Shown: positions 20,790 through 58,144 of the stretch, one piece after another | Position numbering within the stretch: the stretch's first letter is position 1 | How the letters are laid out: every line of letters starts with the position of its first letter | Source of the DNA: Verrucomicrobiia bacterium | GTDB taxonomy: Bacteria; Verrucomicrobiota; Verrucomicrobiia; Limisphaerales; JADLHS01 | Direction: 5' to 3' | Length of the DNA stretch: 64,000 nt | NCBI GenBank assembly: GCA_026125285.1 | Contig: JAHCLO010000014.1 | Location: forward strand, 1 to 64,000 | Position numbers and translations under genes: made by a program | Notes under the pieces: generated by a model | What the model saw: only the letters and a program-made list of their open reading frames with translations | The model's database searches: none | Told to the model about the DNA's origin: nothing

Positions 20790-21039
20790 GCGGGGCTCTC
20801 GCAACCTTCGCCAAGGAGCAAGGCTGGGGCGGGCGTGTTTGCCTTTGGAAGCTCCTGTTCAAAACCAGGACCAAGCTGCAGACTGGCGCAATGCCTTGCT
20901 TGCTCACCAATGCAGTTTCTCGCTTCACCCTTCAGCCTGCGTGATGTTCCAACCTCTGCGCCAGACGTTCCATTCCTTAGTGCCTTGCTCGAGAACACGC
21001 ACATGCTCAGGATTTGCCATTCGCGCCTCGCTTTTCCAG

Positions 21040-21572
21040 TTCCGACAATCCCGTCACCACCTTCATCGTCTCCAAACTCACCGTGATGACCAGGCCGAGG
21101 AGGCGGAGGATCTATTGCTCGTCGTCGAGGCGGTTGGGGTCGCTGATATGGCCGTGCTCGTCTTTGGTGACGCGGTATTGGTCAATCACCCATTAAGGGC
21201 GCTACGGCTGCCGAGGCGGTATCTGAACACTGCCGGCGGGATGCCGGACAGCGTCAGGAATTCGTTGCAGAGCAGTCTGAAGGTTGGACGCGTCACTCCG
21301 TGCGCGCCGTCCGACGATTCTGAAGATGCGGCGCGCAGAGGACTGACTCGCCCTACCAATTTCATCTTTTCGACGCGGTAGTTCAGGGGCACATCTTGGT
21401 TTTCGTTACGCTGGAGTCTGTATTCGGCGGCGGATTCGTAATTGACGTGCAGGTCGGCGAGCTTTTTACCGGCGACGGCGAAGGTGTGGAAAAGTGTGGC
21501 GCTGGCTTCTGGGTCGCGATCGGGTTGGGCGTCGCCCTGCATTTTCTCAATGGCGGAGAGGGGGAAGAACGA
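21040..21572 (-). pseudogene. Remnant of type ISP restriction-modification enzyme, C-terminal end
   Basis: Minus-strand fragments resemble the C-terminus of type ISP/Eco57I-like restriction-modification enzymes. The first piece (21572 to about 21360) reads FFPLSAIEKMQGDAQ, then ADLHVNYESAAEY and YRVEKMKL. A second piece, after the insertion at 21283-21357, reads LTLSGIPPAVFRYRLGSRSAL. A third, in another frame, reads WVIDQYRVTKDEHGHISDPN, then an in-frame TAG, then ILRLLGLVITVSLETMKVV. The 75-bp palindromic element separates VEKMKL from LTLSGIPP, which are close together in intact homologues. No N-terminal helicase or methylase part exists here. The rest of 20790-21757 shows nothing else beyond the small hairpin at 21584. 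Confidence 0.75.
21283..21357. repeat. 75-bp imperfect palindromic element, copy 1 (family A)
   Basis: Sequence starting GTTGGACGCGTC and ending CGCCCTACC, with inverted GC-rich arms (in the minus reading GGTAGGGCG, CTGCGCGCC ... GGCGCGCACGG, CGTCCAAC). Its counterpart, also 75 bp, is at 47150-47224 in the opposite orientation. It interrupts the type ISP remnant in frame on one side. Confidence 0.85.
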
Positions 21573-21583
21573 TGCACCGTAGC

Positions 21584-21608
21584 AGCCAACGTCAGTTGGC
21601 TCTGACTT
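21584..21608. repeat. Small hairpin repeat, variant copy (family C)
   Basis: The minus-strand reading AGTCAGAGCCAACTGACGTT has a GCCAAC/GTTGGC stem. The same position in the kinase copies (48506, 49061) has GCCGAC/GTCGGC, so stem pairing is kept by matched changes. It lies at the upstream edge of the type ISP remnant. Confidence 0.7.
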
Positions 21609-21757
21609 CTTGCCGGGTTCCCACCCTCCTGCACGCCCAGTCGTAACCGCTGGTACAGTGGCGCATGACTGTGATACCGAGCCGAATCCACTCCCGGCGT
21701 TGACCGGCATCCAGCGCGGAGGTAGTCTCATTCCCGGGCAAACATTTCATACGGAGA

Positions 21758-27416: not shown

Positions 27417-27458
27417 TGAGATTCTCAGTTGACACCGTACTGCGATCGTGTCAGAAGG

Positions 27459-27483
27459 TGTCTTGACAAGTTCAGTCAAGACA
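27459..27483 (+). promoter_or_regulatory. Candidate C-box operator of the control protein
   Basis: The 9-bp arms TGTCTTGAC (27459-27467) and GTCAAGACA (27475-27483) are perfectly complementary around a 7-base spacer, and the right arm abuts the ATG at 27484. A second shorter inverted repeat TGACAC...GTGTCA lies just upstream at 27430-27453. A TTGACA-like element overlaps it. This is the expected layout of autoregulatory C-boxes in restriction-modification operons. Confidence 0.6.
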
Positions 27484-27795
27484 ATGCCGGACAAATCCAG
27501 CTTTGGCGAATTTATTCGCAAGATGCGGCAAGACCGCGAAGAACCGCTTCGCGTTGTTGCTGCAGCAGTGGATATTGATTCCACGTTGCTAAGCAAGCTG
27601 GAGCACGGCGATAGATTCCCGACCGAGGCGCAGATTTCCAAATTCGCCAGGTTTTTCAAAGTCTCCGAGGGAGAACTGAAGGGGCGGGTGATTGCGGACA
27701 AGGTCACGTCAGAATATGACGACGAGGAAGCGGCCTTGCACGCAGCCCAAATTCTCAAGGAACGAGCCACGCCTTACAGAACCAGCTCGAAATGA
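27484..27795 (+). CDS. HTH XRE-family control (C) protein of restriction-modification locus
   Basis: A 103-aa XRE/Cro-type regulator. The helix-turn-helix is at about 18-60 (MRQDREEPLRVVAAAVDIDS, TLLSKLEHGDRFPTEAQI). Such proteins time expression of R-M genes by binding C-boxes in front of their own gene. The ATG at 27484 was chosen over an upstream GTG/TTG-type extension because the inverted repeat lies immediately before it. It overlaps the first methyltransferase by 4 bases (ATGA), so the genes are coupled. Confidence 0.75.
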   Translation: MPDKSSFGEFIRKMRQDREEPLRVVAAAVDIDSTLLSKLEHGDRFPTEAQISKFARFFKVSEGELKGRVIADKVTSEYDDEEAALHAAQILKERATPYRTSSK

Positions 27796-28646
27796 CAAAG
27801 GGACAAATATTCACGGAACACGGCGTGCGCATGCGCCTCCAAGATTCACTTGAAGGCATGGCAGAGTTGCCCCCGCAGTCATTCGACCTGGCGATTGCCG
27901 ATCCGCCTTATGGCGCTTCCACGACGGCGACTTGGAAGATTGATCGCGGCCACGCGCTTGCCGGCATGGGCGGGGCGTGGAAGCTGGCGGCTCATTCGTG
28001 GGATCAGCTTTGCAACATCGAAGGATTCGAGGGGACGATGGCTTTTCTTTCGGAACTAAAGCGGTTGATCAAACCGACCGGCTCGATTTGGGTTCACGCT
28101 ACTTACCACAACGCCGGAGTGGTCAACGTCGCTTGCCAGATCCTCGGTCTGGAGATTATCAACGAGGTGATTTGGTTCAAACGGAACGCTTTCCCAAACC
28201 TCTCGGCGCGCCGGCTCACGGCCAGTCACGAAACCATTTTTTGGATTCATACCGGCGGCAAGCAGCGCCAATACCGCTTCAATTACGATGACGTCAAGGC
28301 GGCGCACTTCCCGGAAGACAACCTGAAGGAGCGCGGGAAACAACTGCGGACGGTTTGGGATATTCCGAACAACAAGAGTCGCGACGAACTCGAGTCCGGC
28401 TCGCATCCCACGCAGAAGCCGCTCCGGCTGACCGAGCGGTTGCTTTTGATCGCCGGTTTGCGCGGCGGAAAACTGCTCGTTCCATTTCTCGGCTCGGGCA
28501 CGGAGGTCATCGCGGGCATGAGATTCGGAATGGAATCCACGGGGTTTGAGATTGATCGCAATTATTTTGACCTCGCCTGCAAGCGAGTCCGGCAGGAAAT
28601 TGAGCAGACACAAGCCGCGCCAAAACTTGACCTCGTGCCATGCTGA
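27792..28646 (+). CDS. Site-specific DNA methyltransferase, beta-class (M1)
   Basis: A 284-aa amino-methyltransferase. The catalytic motif IV LAIADPPYGAS at about 32-42 precedes the AdoMet-binding motif I (VPFLGSGTE near 230). This order defines the beta class, which includes many type II enzymes such as DpnA. The C-terminal SHPTQKPLRLTERLL is also conserved in that class. The DPPY suggests N6-adenine methylation. It overlaps the start of the second methyltransferase by 7 bases. The specificity cannot be told from sequence. Confidence 0.9.
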   Translation: MTKGQIFTEHGVRMRLQDSLEGMAELPPQSFDLAIADPPYGASTTATWKIDRGHALAGMGGAWKLAAHSWDQLCNIEGFEGTMAFLSELKRLIKPTGSIWVHATYHNAGVVNVACQILGLEIINEVIWFKRNAFPNLSARRLTASHETIFWIHTGGKQRQYRFNYDDVKAAHFPEDNLKERGKQLRTVWDIPNNKSRDELESGSHPTQKPLRLTERLLLIAGLRGGKLLVPFLGSGTEVIAGMRFGMESTGFEIDRNYFDLACKRVRQEIEQTQAAPKLDLVPC

Positions 28647-29560
28647 TCGCCGATAATCCCTTCGAGCCGGTCATCAAATGGTCCGGCAGCAAGCGTTCGG
28701 TTGCAGCGAGCCTGCGGAATTTATTTCCGCGAGCCGCGCGATATTTCGAGCCGTTTGTCGGCGGCGGCGCGATGCTGCCGTTCCGTCCGTGCCGTGACGC
28801 GGTCGCGGGAGATGTCATTGAGGAGTTGATTGACCTTTGGGTTTGCATCCGCGACGAGCCGGACAGAACCGCGACTGAATACAAGAAGCGCTGGCACAAA
28901 CTACAAGACGAGGGGCACACCGCCTACTACGCGATCCGCGATACATTCAATCGGACGCGCAACCCGCACGATTTTCTTTTTCTCACGCGCACTTGCGTGA
29001 ACGGGCTGATTCGCTTCAACGGTGACGGCGATTTCAACAACTCGCTTCACCACACGCGCCCCGGCATCGCGCCGCAACGGCTTCGCGAAATCATCCGCAA
29101 GTGGAGCGTCGCGCTTCAAGGTGTGTCGTTCGCCAAAGCTGACTACCGCGAAACCCTGTCCCCGGTGGCGGCTGATGATCTGGTTTTTCTCGACCCGCCT
29201 TACGCCGCAACGCGCGGCAGGTATTCGCAGGAGAAATTTGACGTGGGGGGATTCTACGCCGAGTTGGGTCGTTTGAACGACGTTGGCGCAAAGTGGATCG
29301 TCACATTCGATGGCTACGCTGGGGAGCGAACCTACGAAGAATCGCTGCCGAAAGGCCTTTTCGAGATGCGGCTGGCGTTGCCTACGGGAAATTCCCCGTT
29401 CACCAAGCTCATGCGAACCGGCGTGGACGCGGTGGTCGAGTCAGTGTATTTGAACTTTGAGCCGCCCGCCAAAATTCTCCGCGGCTTCTCGGATGATCGG
29501 AACGAGAAAGCTCGCGTTGGCGTTGGTCTTGAGGTGGAGCAGGGTTGCCTTTTCGTTTGA
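28640..29560 (+). CDS. Dam-like adenine DNA methyltransferase, alpha-class (M2)
   Basis: A 306-aa D12-class enzyme. The N-terminal KWSGSKRSVAASLRNLFP and YFEPFVGGGAMLP (motifs X and I) and the catalytic VFLDPPYAAT near residue 185 follow the Dam/DpnM order. With M1 it gives the pair seen in MboI/DpnII-like systems, so one could protect each strand of an asymmetric site, or both could act on one site in different contexts. The last 120 bases are antisense to the 3' end of the endonuclease gene. The extreme C-terminus may not be conserved. Confidence 0.88.
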   Translation: MLIADNPFEPVIKWSGSKRSVAASLRNLFPRAARYFEPFVGGGAMLPFRPCRDAVAGDVIEELIDLWVCIRDEPDRTATEYKKRWHKLQDEGHTAYYAIRDTFNRTRNPHDFLFLTRTCVNGLIRFNGDGDFNNSLHHTRPGIAPQRLREIIRKWSVALQGVSFAKADYRETLSPVAADDLVFLDPPYAATRGRYSQEKFDVGGFYAELGRLNDVGAKWIVTFDGYAGERTYEESLPKGLFEMRLALPTGNSPFTKLMRTGVDAVVESVYLNFEPPAKILRGFSDDRNEKARVGVGLEVEQGCLFV

Positions 29561-31435
29561 AAAGAATTCCAGCGCGAACGCAGCGTCGAGGTTGCCGTGT
29601 TTAAGGCAGCGTTCGAGTTTCTCCTGGTTTTCCCAACAGAACGCCCCAGCGGAAATGACTTCGGAAACCAGCTTCAGCGGGTTGCCGCTGTATGGCGTCC
29701 ACTCTCTGCCGGGCGGCCTGCAAATCGTCGGAGGACTCGCCAGCAAGTCGTGCATGAACCGCTTCAGGCGTCGCCCAACAGTGTCCTCAAGTTTGCCAGC
29801 GGTGTCTTTGGATTCAATGGCCGCGAGAATGGCGGTCTTGCCTGATTGCGAAATCTGAATGACGTGGTCGGGACGTTTTCCATCCTTGCCAGAGACGCGC
29901 GGCAAAGATGTCCAACGATACTGCGTGCCAGCACACCCATCCCGCAGCGTGACGCCGCTCCAATCCCCGCCCGGCGGATTGCACATGGACTCGAAAATCT
30001 TTTCATCACCGAAACGCGAGAACAAAAGGTGGAGCACAGAATCAACATCATGCTCGCTGAATCTCTCCGGCAAGACCACCGTCGGAAACGCAACGAGCGC
30101 GTTGCGAGCCCTTGAGTCGCGATTCGTCAACACGGTCTGTGGCCCGCCGCGCAAGGTTGCACTGTCGGCCAGCACCGCATCGCTCAAGTTGATGACAGCT
30201 TCCCACAGCCCATTCTCCATCGCCAATTTAGCAGGGTTGGTTTGGAACGCTCGCCACATTTCAGCTTTCCCCGGCCCGGACACAACGGACAGGATCCGCG
30301 CTTCGTTTCCAAACAACATCCGAGCCAGCGGTACGAGTCCACGGTCGGGCCGAGAATCATCACCGCGAGGCTTGAAACCAGTGACCCAGACAACGACCAA
30401 CGGATGTTTGTTTAGTGCAAGCCATGCAACAAAATCGGCGTTGAGGCGATTGCCATAAAGTTGTTGAAGACTCTTTGCAAGTCGGGCGCACTTCGACTGC
30501 GGAATCAAGCAAATGGGAATTGCACCTGCGCCAACCGCCAGGCTTGACGCTGATTCAAGCCGTTTGACCAGCTTCGGAAAAGTTGTGGACACACGCACCT
30601 TGTCCGAGACTTTTCGAGTCCACGACAAGTTGCGGCGTTCCAGCCAATGCGCTTTTTCCAGAGCGCTTGGCTGGTTCAAGAACTCACTCCACTCATCACC
30701 GCGCAGCGTGTCCACGCGCTTTCGGCCCGCCGAAAGAATTTGAACCATCAGCAACGCGCGGGATGTCAATTCAGCCTCGGCTTGGGCGTGTGAAGCGCCT
30801 TCAATGGTGGCCCTCACCAATTGTTGCCCAATTTCCACGCCGAACGATGAGGCGAAATCCGCTCGAATCTTCGCGTCACTCGAAGGACTCGCCGCATAAA
30901 CCGGCAGGCATATGACACGATAAGCACGCGAGGCCGTGAGATAGGAAAACGGAACAATCGGATTCGGGAAACGTGATGCTTTGACCACCCGCCGCGCATC
31001 AAGCTCGACGCCGCCAACTTCGGCGAAGTAAAGATAAGGAATTCCGACCGCTGCACACGCCAACGCGCGGCCGTTGCGCTGCCAGGCGTTGTTTCCGGCT
31101 GGGAGCGCGCTGCAGAATTCCAACGCCGCCACAATCTGCTCGGTTGTTTCGTCGTTGGAAAGCTTGGTGAGAATAACATCCGTCGCCTCTCGCAATGGCG
31201 CACCGTGGTCGCGCAGCATTTGCTGAAGGTCTATTCGCCAACGCCCGTGCCCCGGAATCAAATCCACTCCGAACAAAACACTGCCGTCCTTGACGATTTC
31301 AAATGCTGGCCGAAAGGGATCGCTCGGAATGAGTCTGGCCTGCGCGGCAAAGGCTTGGGCAATTAGTTCCAAACAGCGATCACACTCGACGATGTTGTCG
31401 CCATGAATTCGGAACTTAATTTGGGATTCAATCAT
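29441..31435 (-). CDS. Candidate type II restriction endonuclease (PD-(D/E)XK)
   Basis: A 664-aa protein not recognised as a close homologue of any named restriction enzyme. Near residues 522-542 it has RPDHVIQIS followed after 16 residues by AAIESKD, which fits the PD...(D/E)xK nuclease core with P522-D523 and E540-S541-K542. The position beside a C protein and two methyltransferases makes restriction the likely role. It is transcribed against them and overlaps M2 by 120 bases. The protein is larger than most type II enzymes, so an extra N-terminal recognition or dimerisation region (about 1-480) is expected. It could instead be a type IV-like or fused nuclease. No signal peptide or membrane segment. 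Confidence 0.65.
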   Translation of the reverse strand: MIESQIKFRIHGDNIVECDRCLELIAQAFAAQARLIPSDPFRPAFEIVKDGSVLFGVDLIPGHGRWRIDLQQMLRDHGAPLREATDVILTKLSNDETTEQIVAALEFCSALPAGNNAWQRNGRALACAAVGIPYLYFAEVGGVELDARRVVKASRFPNPIVPFSYLTASRAYRVICLPVYAASPSSDAKIRADFASSFGVEIGQQLVRATIEGASHAQAEAELTSRALLMVQILSAGRKRVDTLRGDEWSEFLNQPSALEKAHWLERRNLSWTRKVSDKVRVSTTFPKLVKRLESASSLAVGAGAIPICLIPQSKCARLAKSLQQLYGNRLNADFVAWLALNKHPLVVVWVTGFKPRGDDSRPDRGLVPLARMLFGNEARILSVVSGPGKAEMWRAFQTNPAKLAMENGLWEAVINLSDAVLADSATLRGGPQTVLTNRDSRARNALVAFPTVVLPERFSEHDVDSVLHLLFSRFGDEKIFESMCNPPGGDWSGVTLRDGCAGTQYRWTSLPRVSGKDGKRPDHVIQISQSGKTAILAAIESKDTAGKLEDTVGRRLKRFMHDLLASPPTICRPPGREWTPYSGNPLKLVSEVISAGAFCWENQEKLERCLKHGNLDAAFALEFFSNEKATLLHLKTNANASFLVPIIREAAENFGGRLKVQIH

Positions 31436-39735: not shown

Positions 39736-39806
39736 GTAGCCGCCGACGTAAGGAGGCGGATCGAGCTGATTCGTGATACACCCGTCTCCTCACGTCGGCG
39801 GCTGCG
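39736..39806. repeat. Palindromic repeat with GTAGCCGCCGACGTAAGGAG arms (family F)
   Basis: The left arm at 39736-39759 and right arm CGTCTCCTCACGTCGGCGGC (39783 onward) form an inverted repeat of about 24 bases with three differences. The right arm shares CACGTCGGC with the family C hairpins in the kinase gene, so the two families may be related. Confidence 0.75.
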
Positions 39807-46196: not shown

Positions 46197-46393
46197 GCCT
46201 TGTTTGTACCGAAATCCAAAATGGAAGACACGCAGAACTCCGTGGGCGGGCAGACTTTTTTCCAGAAGATGGGGGGCAGAATCGGCACCGGCCCAAGGCT
46301 TGAAGCTTCATACAGTCACGGACGGACAGATTGCCCGGAAGCGGTGGCGCATTTTCCGCAACAAATTCGCGGATTTGCTTCTGAAGATTGTGT

Positions 46394-49300
46394 ATGAATG
46401 ATCGCGAAGTGAATCCGCCGGCTGAATCTCGAACCTGCCCGCAATGCGGCACGCCGCTCCCCACCGGCACACTGACCGGGCTTTGTCCTGCCTGCCTGCT
46501 GCAACAGGGCGCCGCGGCGGACACTGTCACCGAGGGCAAACAAGCGCCGTTCGAGCCGCCGCCGATTGCCGAACTCGCGCCGCTGTTTCCGCAACTGGAA
46601 ATTCTCGAACTCGTCGGCAAAGGCGGCATGGGCGCCGTCTATAAGGCGCGCCAGAAGCAACTCGACCGTCTGGTGGCGTTGAAAGTCCTTCCGCCCGGTA
46701 TCGGCAACGATCCGGCCTTCGCCGAACGCTTCGCCCGCGAGGCCAAGGCGCTCGCGAAGCTGAACCATCCCGGCATCGTGACGCTGTATGAGTTTGGGCA
46801 GGTTGGTAGTGGCACGGGCGTCCCGCCTGTTCGAACCGGGACAAGCATCGAGAACATGCCGGTCGCTGGGAGCTTGGGAGACTGCGAACAGAAACGAACG
46901 GGCGGGACGCCCGTGCCACTATTTTACTTCCTCATGGAATTCGTGGACGGCGTGAACCTGCGCCAACTGCTTCACGCGGGTCGGATTTCCGCTCGGGAGG
47001 CGCTGGCCATCGTGCCGCAGATTTGCGACGCGCTCCAATTTGCCCATGACCAGGGCATCGTCCATCGCGACATCAAGCCGGAGAACATCTTGTTGGATCG
47101 CCGGGGCCGCGTGAAGGTGGCGGATTTTGGTTTGGCGAAGATTGTTGAAGGTAGGGCGGGCAGTCCTCTGCCCGCCGCTGAATCACCCACGGAGGGCGGC
47201 GCGCACGGAGTGACGCGCCCTACCGACTCCTTCACCGACGCCGGCAAAGTCATGGGCACGCCGCAATACATGTCGCCCGAACAGCGCGAGCATCCCGCCG
47301 ACGTGGATCATCGGGCGGACATCTACGCGCTGGGCGTGGTGTTCTACCAAATGCTCACCGGTGAGTTGCCCGGCAAACCGCTCCAGCCACCTTCCAAGAA
47401 AGTTCAAATTGACGTGCGCCTCGATAAAGTGGTGTTGCGGGCGTTAGAGAAAAGTCCCGAACTCCGTTTCCAGCAAGTCAACGAAGTGAAGACCTGCGTT
47501 GAGACGATTGTGAATTCAGGGAGCGCAAGCGTCCCGCCTGCCGGATCGGGCGTTCCATCTGGTTCACCGTCCAACAAAATCAAGAAAGAGGAATCAACAT
47601 TTGACTGGATAGGATCATTCCCAAGATTCGATGCCCCGTTTGCCGTAAGGCGAGGAAGCCAGCGCGTTTTCAATTGGTCAGTCATAGGAATGAATCTCCT
47701 TTGGGGACTTGTCCTGATTTCCATTTTGGTGCCGGCCTTGCTCAAGGGGTTGTCTATCACTGACAAGAATGCGAATGTCATAATAGCTCTCTTCCTTGGG
47801 TGGGTTGTCGTCGTCTTCGCAGTTCGAGTGGTGCGCGGAATAATTTCGCCTCTCGAATCCTTGCCAGCCGAACCGGTCGTTTCGCCCAGTAACCGAAGCA
47901 CCTCGGCTGCTGCAACTCGGAAGAATCTAAGCCGGGGTGCTATCTTCGCGCGCTCGTCTCTCGTCGCGTTCATTGTCGGGCTTTTGGTTTTTGCCCTAGC
48001 TGCAAGCGTGACGAGCCTGTTGCCCCGAACATACGCCGCTCAGGCGCGAGTCACGCTCGCTGCCACTCAGAACCTCGATCCTTACGCACTGCAAACTGAG
48101 CTTGCCCGCTTCGAATCGCCGGACTTCCTCCAGCAGGTTGCGGACAAAGCCAGCCTACGGAGGATTTGGAAGGATTCATTGGTCGGAGATGACGCGGCGC
48201 AAGCCGGGCGGATTGCGTTCAGGCTTCGCAACGCGATGGAGCTTCGTCCTGTCCGCAACACCGGCCTTGTTGAAATCCGTTACCATAGCGAGTCGGCGGG
48301 TGAAGCCGCAGACATCGCCAACGCCATCGCCCGAACTTACTGCGAGCAGACGCACGCCGAGTTAATTGACCTGGCGCAACCGCCTCCTCGTCCAACACGG
48401 CCCAACCCGTTCTTGAATCTGGCGGGGGGCGTTGTTGCCGGAAGTTTGTTCGGCCTGTTCGCGGGTGGGATAACGTGGCTACTCTTTTGGCTCAGGAATC
48501 GAACTAGTCAGAGCCGACTCACGTCGGCTGGTAGGACTACAAGTCAAGACTCGCGCTTTTCACGCACCGCCATAGCGGGAGTTTGCCTGGCAGTTCTGGC
48601 GTTGGTGACATTTGCACTGGCGGGAATTGTCAGCAATCTCGCACCCGCCATTATGCTGCCGGATGGGCAGCGCCTGCCCAACAACCAAGCGACACTCGTT
48701 GTCTTGCTCCTGATTTTGGCCGGAGCACTGTGCGCATCTTTTTCTACATTGTTTGGCTGGGTGGCCGTCACTCAAATCTGCCGTTCAGCGGGGAAACGGC
48801 ACGGCCTGTGGCTGGCGGTGTTCGATGGGCTTTTCTTTCCCTTGCTCGCTTTGTCTGCATTGGTCATTTGGGCTGGAAATGTAGTTTCAACGCTGATTCC
48901 GCCCCGGCTTTCTCCACTCCTCGTCCCGGTGTTGGTAGGATTGATCGCCCTGGTGGTCTATCGCCTGACTGATTCGGTCATCCGCCGCGTCTGGCACGCG
49001 GTGAGTGCGGCTGGCAGTGGGCCTCAGTCCACTCAAGGTGATTCTCCCGCTACCCCCGCCAGTCAGAGCCGACTCACCTCGGCTGCGACCACGGATAGCC
49101 AGCCTTGGTTCGCATTTTGCACGGCGCTGACTTACACGGCGACGCTTCTCTTCGGCCTTCTATGCGCGGCGTTTTGCAGCAACCTTTCGGGAGGCTGGGT
49201 GATCGGCGTCTTCATTCTGCTGGCGCTCGCAACCCCGGCCTTGGCCTTCGTGTTGCACCGATTCGTCGGCGCGGAATCCCAACGGACCTGTTTCAAGACC

Positions 49301-55021: not shown

Positions 55022-55993
55022 ATGTTTGTAGTTCGACGGCGATCCACAGTTGATATGCCAGCAGCACGCTTGCCCAACGCAGGCTTCCGTTCCGGGCCTC
55101 AAGGAAAAACTGTAGCTTCGATCCCTCCCCCGGTTGCGCGTCAGAGTGCCTTTACCCTGATTGAACTGCTGGTGGTGATTGCCATCATCGCGATTTTGGC
55201 GGCGCTGCTGCTGCCGACGTTGAGCCGGGCCAAAGATAAAGCTCGCGCGGTTTCCTGTTTGAACAATGAACGGCAGATTAGCCTGAGCTACCGGGAGAGC
55301 TACGAGCAGGGCAGCCAGCGTTTGGACCAGCCATCGGTGGCTGACTGGTGGCTTGTAGAAGCGGGGCGGCCAGAGCGCGCCTGGATTTGTCCGAACGCAC
55401 CAGTGGTAACACCCGGGTTGTCACCGATGGGTCCATTCAGCCAATACGACTACGGCACCGTGCGATCCGCCTGGGTTTGCCGGTCGTGGGAAGTCTGGCT
55501 GATCGGGCACACGGCCAAGCCCGAGGACACGGCGGGGCTGCCATTTCCGCGAGCGGGGAGTTATGCGTTCAACGTCTGGCTGCTGCACATGGCGTTGGAG
55601 GCGCGGTTCCCGCCAATCGGTCCCTTCAACCTGCCGAACTCCGACTTCCGGAGTGAAGCCGACATTCGGCACCCCGCCCGGACGCCGGTCCTGGCGGAAG
55701 GGGCCAGTTGGCGAGCGTTCGTGTTCGGAGATGGTGGACTCCCGGCGCGGGATCTCTTTTCGGGCTGGCAGGGCTTGGGATCAGCGGGCGGCCTTGCTGA
55801 AATGACTCTCCCGCGCCACGGGAAGCGACCACAGTCGGTCCCCCGGGACTGGCCCGTCAATCGGCCTTTGCCGGGCGGCGTGAATGTGGCGTTTTTTGAC
55901 GGGCATGTGCGGTTGGTCCCCTTGGAAGAACTCTACCAGCTTTATTGGAACAAGTCGTACCGGCCACCAGCAAGACGGCCTGGATTACAATGA
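55022..55993 (+). CDS. Tandem pseudopilin (3)
   Basis: A 323-aa protein whose leader [20 protein letters not shown] is at about 43-62, longer than the usual N-terminal distance. The C-terminal [20 protein letters not shown] has the DGHV motif. The upstream frame is antisense to pqaA, so the ATG at 55022 was chosen, with GGCGGGAC just before it. It is the first of three tandem pseudopilin genes whose C-termini are alike ([33 protein letters not shown]). Confidence 0.82.
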
Positions 55994-56006
55994 CACTCCT
56001 AAGCTT

Positions 56007-56969
56007 ATGAATCTCATGGGTGACTTTCTAGCGATCCGCACCCGGAAACCTGGGCTCCTTGATCCCCGTCCCGTGCGTTCGTCTTGGCCCACGACAACTC
56101 GCCCATCCCAACCCGCCTTGTGCCGCGTAACCGGGTTCACGCTGATCGAGTTGCTGGTGGTGATTGCCATCATCGCGATTCTGGCGGCGCTGCTGCTGCC
56201 GGCGATAAGCCGCGCCAGGCAAAAAGCGCATCAAGTGCAATGCCAGAGCAACCAACGTCAGATCCTATTCAGTTACCGCATGGCCGCGGACGATGCGGGC
56301 GACGGGAGGCTGGACGGAACAGCGGTTCACGATTGGTACTGCGAGGACCTGGGGCGGCCCGGAAGGGCGTGGATTTGCCCGGGTGCGCCGGTTGGCCAGG
56401 TCCCGGCTGCTTCGCTTCCGCCGTGGGACAAATTCGTGAGTGGTACATATCGTTCGGCCTGGGTGGAAGCAGACAAGTGGGAAGCCGATGGCGGGACGGA
56501 GCCGGTGCTGAAGCCTGACCTGCGCATGGGCAGTTATACTTTCAATCATTGGTTCGTCACGGCCGCACGCGTTCGCCGCTATCCCGCCTACGCGGTTCAG
56601 TCACAAACCCTGGTTCTTTTGGCGGAATCATTCAGCGCCGAAAGCGATATTGTGCGGCCGGCATCCACCCCCATCTCCGGCGATGGTGTCTCGCCTACCG
56701 CTGCGCCACGAGCCTGGGACACCGCGCCTGATCTCGCGCCAACGGGGCGAGTTGCCCAATTCAAGGGAATCTATAATTTTACCATTCCGCGGCACGGGCG
56801 GCGGCCCAGTTCGGTGCGCACGGATTGGCCGGTTAACCAGCCTTTCCCGGGTGCAGTGAATATGGCGATGTATGACGGCCATGTGGAATTGGTGAAGCTG
56901 GACGACCTTTGGCAACTCTACTGGCACAAGGACTACCAGCCGCCGGTGAAGCGGCCAGGATTGCAATGA
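56007..56969 (+). CDS. Tandem pseudopilin (4)
   Basis: A 320-aa protein. The leader [20 protein letters not shown] is at about 43-62, with [15 protein letters not shown] and the terminal [20 protein letters not shown] closely matching the next gene. It begins 13 bases after the preceding stop, so the genes form one operon. Function as for the others: an exported PilD-processed protein, perhaps a minor pilin or adhesin. Confidence 0.85.
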
Positions 56970-56977
56970 AAGTGGCC

Positions 56978-57070
56978 AGCTCCGTCGGAGCGGAATATTT
57001 GTAGTCATGCGAACCAAGAATGAACGAAGCCCCGTAGGGGCGAAATCTTCTGTGCCGCTCCTACGGAGCT
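56978..57070. repeat. GC-rich short repeats (family G) before the last tandem pseudopilin
   Basis: Three related palindromic pieces: AGCTCCGTCGGAGCGG at 56979, CCCCGTAGGGGCG at 57030 and CGCTCCTACGGAGC at 57056. Each is an inverted repeat with a CGTNGG-like core. They lie between the pseudopilin at 56007 and the ATG at 57103. Confidence 0.7.
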
Positions 57071-57102
57071 TGACGCACCACGGCAACGGGGCGGCTACAG
57101 AT

Positions 57103-57900
57103 ATGCCGGCCCTCCGGGCCCGCCGCCACCGCGCGTTTACCCTGATCGAGTTGCTGGTGGTGATTGCCATCATCGCGATTCTGGCGGCGCTGCTGTTGCC
57201 GGCGTTGAGCCGGGCCAAAGAGAAGGCCCACCGGGTGGTGTGCGCGAGCAACCAGCGGCAGAACGTGCTGGGTTTTCGCTTGGTGGATGATAATTCTGGA
57301 CGATATGAGCGGCCCGAGTATCACGAGTGGTTCACAAACGAGGTCGGGCGGGCGGGCCGACCGTGGCTGTGCCCCACGGCGCCAATGGCTAAGGATCCTG
57401 CGGCGTCACCCGGGCAATGGGGAACGGTGAAATCCGCCTGGGTCTTCGACTGGGGGCGGTCTTCGCGGCCAGATTGGCGGGCGGGAAGTTACGGTGTGAA
57501 CCTGCACATCGTGCCGCGCGCGTGGTCGCCAGACAGGAACTGGAACAGTTCCTCGCTTCCAGGGTATTTGAATGAGAGTCAAGTGGCGCAGCCTTTCTTC
57601 ACGCCAGTAGTGGCAGATGCGGTTCACTTTGGGCTTGTTCCCTTTGCGACCGACCCTCCAGCGGTTGACCTGGTTGCGGGTGTGACCGCTGCCAGCCACA
57701 TGAGCTTTCTATGCATCCCACGACATGGCCGGCGACCCAACCCAGTCCCGCGAAGCTGGCCGGCGAGACAGCCACTTCCTGGGGCGGTGACCGTGGGGTT
57801 TTATGACGGGCGGGTGGAATTGGTGAAACTCGACAATTTGTGGCAGTTGTACTGGCACAAAGACTACCAGCCGCCGGTGAAGCGACCAGGGTTGCCATGA
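57103..57900 (+). CDS. Tandem pseudopilin (5)
   Basis: About 265 aa. The leader [20 protein letters not shown] begins about 12 residues after the ATG at 57103. An in-frame ATG at 57007 would add 32 residues that read through the family G repeats, so the shorter start is preferred. The C-terminal [20 protein letters not shown] has DGRV in place of DGHV. Nucleotide identity with the two neighbours is very high across the leader. Confidence 0.85.
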
Positions 57901-58144
57901 AGCGCAGGGATTGCGCGGTATCTTCCTAAGTTCATCAACTCCCTTATTCCCAGCGAAAGGAGCGCCGAGGCATTGTCGGGTTTGCGGATCTGCCGCAGCC
58001 AATGCCGGTCACAGCCTCGTGCTCCCGGGTTTTTCTCTTGGTGCAGCCCCGCTCCAGTCATCAAGGATTCACATAGCCGCTACGGATGAAGTGAAGGCTC
58101 GCTGGGACATTCGCTGAAGCCGCGAAGGAGCCGTCGCCGGAAGC

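What the first reader, a model, noticed from the sequence alone, without database searches (positions are those of the whole stretch)
21040..21572. Decayed type ISP restriction-modification gene split by the same 75-bp element
Recognisable C-terminal pieces (VEKMKL, LTLSGIPP, WVIDQYRV, VITVSLETMKVV) appear in order, with an in-frame TAG and a frame change. The element lies exactly between two pieces that are adjacent in intact enzymes, so it inserted into a once-functional gene.
Basis: partly seen in the sequence, partly recalled or inferred. Interest (0 to 1): 0.65.

Follow-up and report, generated by a model that had tools for sequence, protein, structure and literature searches.

The report
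Restriction-enzyme remnant with in-frame REP insertion
A dead leftover of a bacterial DNA-cutting defence gene carries a short palindromic repeat that sits, without breaking the reading frame, at the tip of a protein hairpin where unrelated repeats have landed again and again in relatives; the pieces are of known kinds, but the repeated use of one spot is unusual.

Summary
Window 21034-21563 (minus strand) is the C-terminal end of a single-chain restriction-modification enzyme (Pfam Type_ISP_C, E 1.6e-12), broken by a frameshift and an internal TAG; the N-terminal ~85% is absent. The '75-bp element' (21282-21357) is one of ~65+ copies found of a GTAG-tagged REP dimer in this genome.

Two parts of the interpretation change. 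(1) The closest full-length relatives (~1020 aa) lack the helicase that defines type ISP; their architecture is DrdV-like (Type IIG/IIL). (2) The REP did not split the gene: it is in frame and replaces four residues at the turn of the guide-subdomain beta-hairpin. The gene died by other lesions. The same REP family sits in frame in LeuRS, MutY and other conserved genes of this genome.

Beyond the finding: the same hairpin carries REPs in a second, phylogenetically distinct remnant in this genome, in two other verrucomicrobial genomes (a different REP family), in a full-length Ktedonobacterales enzyme (third family) and in a long open verrucomicrobial enzyme (fourth family). One origin is rejected (AU p 0.00016), so this loop was hit repeatedly. 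Intragenic REPs, and roughly same-site REPs in Xanthomonas recB, are known. I rate it a new member of a known kind, with an interesting hotspot.

The parts
21034..21563 (-). C-terminal remnant (guide part of the specificity domain) of a single-chain DrdV/type-ISP-like restriction-modification enzyme; pseudogene
   Evidence: PF18135 E 1.6e-12; own-genome profile hit 21156-21503 with an internal stop; tblastn to a 1020-aa relative, aa 889-1020
21282..21357 (.). GTAG-tagged REP dimer ('REP1'), here partly degenerate, encoding VGRVSPLRAASSESSDGAHGVTRPT in frame on the minus strand; occupies the turn of the guide beta-hairpin
   Evidence: turn position from AlphaFold models
21193..21194 (-). Frameshift (codon one base short) between ...RSAL and WVIDQYRV
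   Evidence: Adjacent tblastn blocks end at 21195 and begin at 21192; sequence
21112..21114 (-). Nonsense TAG inside the last helix region (DEQ*ILRLL; relatives have Y)
21579..21611 (+). Half of a second GTAG-tagged REP family ('REP2', GTAGCAGCCAACGTCAGTTGGCTCTGACTTCTT) at the N-terminal boundary of the remnant
   Evidence: Matched by the REP2 pattern in the window; REP2 has 97+100 hits in this genome against 0 for the control; relatives carry REPs in the same linker
47150..47224 (.). Second REP1 copy in the window, in frame inside a Ser/Thr protein kinase, between DFG and the GTPQYMSPEQ segment

Best explanation
This is a pseudogene of a single-chain, DrdV-like (helicase-less, type-ISP-related) restriction-modification enzyme. 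While its reading frame was still intact, it received an in-frame REP dimer of a family abundant in this genome. The REP landed at the turn of the beta-hairpin in the 'guide' subdomain of the specificity domain, replacing about four residues (SKDK) with about 25. The guide steers DNA but does not read bases, so the insertion was probably tolerated. The gene later decayed by N-terminal loss (whose boundary coincides with a second REP family), a frameshift and a nonsense codon. The hairpin is a recurrent REP landing spot: at least three and probably five or six independent insertions, by four GTAG-REP families, are seen at the same turn in relatives. Shown: homology, lesions, REP copy number, frame, hairpin position, more than one origin. 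Inferred: tolerance in the living enzyme, mobilisation in trans by a RAYT-type Y1 transposase, and structural tolerance rather than target choice as the cause of recurrence.
For: Homology and lesions. REP family. Same-turn insertions in other copies: own contig C14, G144, G102 x2; Ktedonobacterales L119, a 1097-aa open frame; G009 L015, no stop in a 912-aa frame, REP at the same columns by HMM alignment. Most relatives have the 8-residue turn segment and no insert. AlphaFold: the turn lies between strands 114-116 and 122-125 of the uninserted relative (pLDDT 87.8); in the REP-bearing copy both strands are kept and the REP peptide has pLDDT <50. One clade of the five verrucomicrobial REP-bearing copies is rejected, AU p 0.00016; the two own copies fall in different parts of the tree, and their REPs are not each other's nearest copies. 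In-frame REP1 in LeuRS, RACo, a radical SAM enzyme, MutY, a glycosyltransferase, GtrA and a kinase, and in DHFR of G009. The window copy has dN/dS 0.34-0.39 against 0.20-0.22 between intact relatives, as expected of long constraint then decay.
Against: All five same-turn copies in the three verrucomicrobial genomes G000, G144 and G102 are C-terminal remnants; the long enzymes with a REP there (L119, L015) are from other lineages, so tolerance in this exact subfamily is not directly shown. Independence of the window copy and the C14 copy alone is only borderline (AU p 0.056, lnL 26 lower; a larger alignment gave p 0.155), and one origin for the four verrucomicrobial-clade copies is not rejected (p 0.25). 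No RAYT gene in the genome is flanked by REP1. Activity was not tested.
Confidence: 0.8

Rival explanations
1. The REP insertion itself inactivated the gene, and the decay followed.
For: All five verrucomicrobial copies with a REP at this turn in G000, G144 and G102 are truncated remnants. The turn replaced includes the equivalent of LlaGI K1479, a DNA-backbone contact (PMC4872093; my alignment offset).
Against: The frame is preserved through the REP in every copy. L119 and L015 are long open enzymes with REPs at the same turn. The same REP sits in frame in LeuRS and other conserved genes. The visible lesions are elsewhere.
Confidence: 0.15
2. One ancestral insertion inherited by all copies, with later replacement of one REP family by another and gene conversion within this genome.
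For: REP boundaries are nearly identical in all copies (same distance to the YN codons). One clade for the four verrucomicrobial-lineage copies is not rejected (p 0.25).
Against: A clade including the C14 copy is rejected (p 0.00016). Uninserted relatives interleave with inserted ones. The window and C14 REPs are not nearest copies. L119 and L015 belong to other subfamilies or phyla.
Confidence: 0.12
3. A DNA target motif at this place attracts REP transposition (site-specific insertion) rather than a tolerant loop surviving selection.
For: Boundaries coincide within 4 nt on one side and exactly on the other for two REP families.
Against: Flanks of 64 REP1 dimers show no shared motif beyond the first base (information <=0.21 bit per position). 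A second loop of the same domain, the linker after RIP, also carries varied inserts, which fits loop tolerance.
Confidence: 0.15
4. The short C-terminal ORFs are a functional stand-alone small protein.
For: The C14 and G144 copies are open over ~190-230 aa and show low dN/dS against intact relatives (0.12-0.29).
Against: C14 shows a probable N-terminal vestige (ELKPSHKLVRAYYA) out of frame and directly joined to aa ~869, i.e. an internal deletion. The window copy has a frameshift and stops. Start points differ between copies.
Confidence: 0.04

Closest known systems
GTAG-tagged REP dimers inside genes (PMC3733652; Opitutus terrae, Thioalkalivibrio, Xanthomonas)
   Same: GTAG tag, inverted-repeat dimer, high copy number, 20-30 in-frame amino acids in conserved genes; O. 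terrae (Verrucomicrobia) had the most intragenic GTAG repeats; different REPs lie at about the same site in recB of two Xanthomonas species
   Different: Here several different REP families share one exactly defined hairpin turn of a restriction-modification enzyme family across phyla; REP1 is not adjacent to a RAYT gene in this genome
Rickettsia palindromic elements (RPE)
   Same: Palindromic repeats inserted in frame in protein-coding genes
   Different: Unrelated sequence and host group; compared through PMC3733652 and from general knowledge, not by alignment here
DrdV (PDB 7lo5/7lvv), Type IIG/IIL restriction-modification enzyme
   Same: Full-length alignment with the intact relative L047 (aa 13-1018, E 1e-193)
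   Different: The window copy is a C-terminal remnant with a REP insertion. The PDB record names it only as a DNA-methyltransferase; its identity as DrdV is from my own knowledge
Type ISP enzymes LlaGI (5ffj) and LlaBIII (4xqk)
   Same: Coupler, methyltransferase and Type_ISP_C specificity domain
   Different: The relatives of this remnant lack the nuclease-helicase part: the alignment covers only aa 161-1018 of the relative

Membership tests
Type ISP restriction-modification enzyme | C-terminal Type_ISP_C specificity domain | tested here: met
   PF18135 E 1.6e-12, above the cut-off
Type ISP restriction-modification enzyme | SF2 helicase-like ATPase in the same chain | tested here: not met
   The closest full-length relative (1020 aa) has coupler, methylase and specificity domains but no helicase; LlaGI/LlaBIII align only from aa 161. 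The remnant itself lacks this region.
Type IIG/IIL (DrdV-like) restriction-modification enzyme | Full-length collinearity with DrdV, nuclease and methylase in one ~1000-aa chain | tested here: inconclusive
   Met for relative L047 (PADLOC PDLC03621 13-1016 of 1024); the remnant keeps only the C-terminus
Functional restriction-modification gene | Uninterrupted reading frame with catalytic domains | tested here: not met
   Frameshift, internal TAG, no N-terminal parts in the window or elsewhere in the genome apart from the second remnant
GTAG-tagged REP | GTAG at the end of a short palindromic stem, in dimers, dispersed at high copy | tested here: met
   GGTAGGGCGCGTCAC...GTGACGCGCCCTACC; 65 distinct dimers in the regions examined
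GTAG-tagged REP | Association with a RAYT (Y1 transposase) gene | tested here: not met
   11 PF01797 hits in the genome; none within 1.5 kb of a REP1 arm; two are flanked by other GTAG hairpins. Not essential to every REP family.
In-frame intragenic REP (RPE-like behaviour) | Repeat translated within an intact conserved gene | tested here: met
   LeuRS, RACo, MutY, radical SAM, GT4, GtrA, kinase and DHFR ORFs with Pfam domains around the REP; translation itself not tested

The most novel reading that the evidence does not exclude
The guide hairpin of DrdV/type-ISP-like enzymes is a recurrent landing pad where REP elements of unrelated families are not merely tolerated but selected, for example because they weaken DNA steering and tame or tune the restriction activity before the system is lost.
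Probability: 0.1. Interest if true: 0.7.

Novelty: new member of a known kind. Interest (0 to 1): 0.42.

Why it matters
It shows that 'the repeat broke the gene' can be wrong: REPs can enter genes in frame at structurally tolerant turns and be carried by working enzymes. Repeated hits on one hairpin by different REP families give a natural insertion experiment. It separates loop tolerance from target choice, and it marks the guide hairpin as a site where restriction enzymes may accept foreign peptides.

Tried and rejected
Missing N-terminal parts: tblastn of a 1020-aa relative against the whole window and the own genome found only the two C-terminal remnants. RAYT next to REP1: none. A target motif in REP1 flanks: none. 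NCBIfam on the remnant: no hit. A phylum-wide DNA pattern for MKL[VI]G: only the two own copies plus two unrelated hits whose translations are not this enzyme. Gene conversion between the two own copies: disfavoured, since their REPs are not nearest neighbours. Helper errors were corrected and repeated.

Full report
What is there. On the minus strand of 21034-21563 lies the C-terminal end of a restriction-modification enzyme. The ORF 21186-21731(-) matches Pfam PF18135 (Type_ISP_C) at E 1.6e-12, and the own-genome profile search finds the same stretch (21156-21503) with an internal stop. A 1020-aa relative (L047) aligns over its aa 889-966 and then, after a one-base frame change, 968-1020. A TAG lies at 21112-21114. 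Nothing of aa 1-888 is found in the window, nor elsewhere in the genome apart from a second remnant.

Which enzyme. The nearest full-length relatives are about 1020-1130 aa, with a coupler, an N6 methylase and the Type_ISP_C domain. [quoted passage not shown] PADLOC calls it Type IIG. PMC4872093 states that type ISP enzymes resemble Type IIL apart from an inserted helicase-like domain. The remnant is therefore best described as DrdV-like (IIG/IIL) with a type-ISP-related specificity domain.

The element. 21282-21357 is a dimer of GTAG-tagged palindromes (REP1). Arm-pattern hits in the genome are 98 forward and 103 reverse against 6 and 9 for the control, and 65 distinct complete dimers were found in the stretches examined. 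It fits the GTAG REP class of PMC3733652, which reported the verrucomicrobium Opitutus terrae as richest in intragenic GTAG repeats. REP1 is in frame in ORFs with clear Pfam domains: leucyl-tRNA synthetase, RACo, a radical SAM enzyme, MutY with its NUDIX domain, a GT4 glycosyltransferase, GtrA, and the window's kinase at 47150; DHFR in genome G009 is another. An in-frame REP in LeuRS argues that such insertions can be tolerated.

The exact place. In uninserted relatives MKL is followed by an 8-residue stretch ([ST]KDKTxLx) and then YND. In the REP-bearing copies the REP peptide replaces about four of these residues, a net gain of 21 residues (63 nt) in the window, C14 and G144 copies. An AlphaFold model of the uninserted domain (pLDDT 87.8) puts this segment at the turn between strands 114-116 and 122-125. 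In the C14 copy both strands persist (72-75, 100-104) and the REP peptide is unstructured, pLDDT <50 at 79-95. In LlaGI this is the guide subdomain, which steers DNA without reading bases (PMC4872093). With an offset of 164, which makes K1473, K1479 and R1508 all fall on the right residue types, the turn contains K1479, a backbone contact; this mapping is my inference.

Recurrence. The same turn carries a REP in (i) the window copy and (ii) a second remnant on contig C14, both REP1; (iii) genome G144 and (iv) two copies in G102, with a second family, REP2; (v) a 1097-aa open enzyme of a Ktedonobacterales bacterium, with a third GTAG repeat; and (vi) a long open enzyme of G009, with a fourth (GTAGGCCGCGTGCCCTCACGCGGC...), placed at the same columns by HMM alignment. 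REP2 is abundant in G144 and G102, and REP1 is at or below background in G144. Trees place the window copy among verrucomicrobial relatives and C14 with UASB270/Desulfomonile/Acidobacteria-type sequences. A single clade of the five verrucomicrobial copies is rejected (AU p 0.00016). The window plus C14 pair alone is borderline (p 0.056; 0.155 in the larger alignment), and the four verrucomicrobial-lineage copies as one clade are not rejected (p 0.25). The window and C14 REPs are not each other's nearest copies. A conservative count is three origins; five or six is likely. No target motif is seen in REP1 flanks, and a second loop of the domain (the linker after RIP) also holds varied inserts, so tolerance of loops is the simplest cause. 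PMC3733652 already noted different REPs at about the same site in recB of two Xanthomonas species.

How it decayed. C14 appears to retain an N-terminal vestige (ELKPSHKLVRAYYA; weak on its own, E 0.097) directly upstream of aa ~869, pointing to an internal deletion. G144's remnant begins at a REP2 in the linker, and the window copy has a REP2 half at 21579-21611 at the same boundary. dN/dS of the window copy against relatives is 0.34-0.39, against 0.20-0.22 between intact relatives, as expected from long constraint followed by decay. The REP at the hairpin is thus a passenger in frame, and the lesions lie elsewhere.

Verdict.

Noticed in passing
window 27448-31435: An apparently complete type II R-M locus 6 kb from the remnant: HTH regulator (27448-27795), N6/N4 methylase (27792-28646), D12 methylase (28640-29560) and, on the minus strand, a 664-aa protein matching a PADLOC type II restriction enzyme at E 8e-115.
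   Followed up: partly
window 46385-47800: Ser/Thr kinase ORF carrying two different repeat families in frame: an inverted repeat (GGCACGGGCGTCCCGCC) at 46811-46917 and REP1 at 47150-47224 between DFG and the activation-segment end.
   Followed up: partly
L207:6163-8400 (G000 C40): Leucyl-tRNA synthetase ORF with an in-frame REP1 peptide (QVGRVTPCVPLSESTERRARSDAPYQ), an apparent case of a REP in an essential gene.
   Followed up: partly
L016:189-794 (G009): Dihydrofolate reductase ORF with an in-frame REP1 peptide; DHFR_1 matches in two stretches, the best of them before the REP.
   Followed up: partly
L143 (G204): A long open enzyme of the same family with two other repeat-like inserts (PHPGPLPLGEGE...SLSQRERAGVRE and LTPSLSPPRGEGARRAGEGS), the second at the guide region.
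   Followed up: no
L164 and L165 (G000 C34, C2): Y1 transposase (RAYT-like) genes flanked by other GTAG hairpins (GTAGCGCCGG..., GTAGCGCAGAGTT...), candidate REPtrons of other REP families.
   Followed up: no
window 39736-39805 and 48515-49089: REP2-like matches: a pair in opposite orientation at 39736 (GTAGCCGCCGACGTAAGGAG) and 39786, and two weaker minus-strand matches at 48515 and 49070.
   Followed up: no
window 55147-57901: Three tandem, 70-79% alike stretches about 1 kb apart that begin with a prepilin-like [16 protein letters not shown] signal (direct repeats D1-D3), likely a gene triplication.
   Followed up: no
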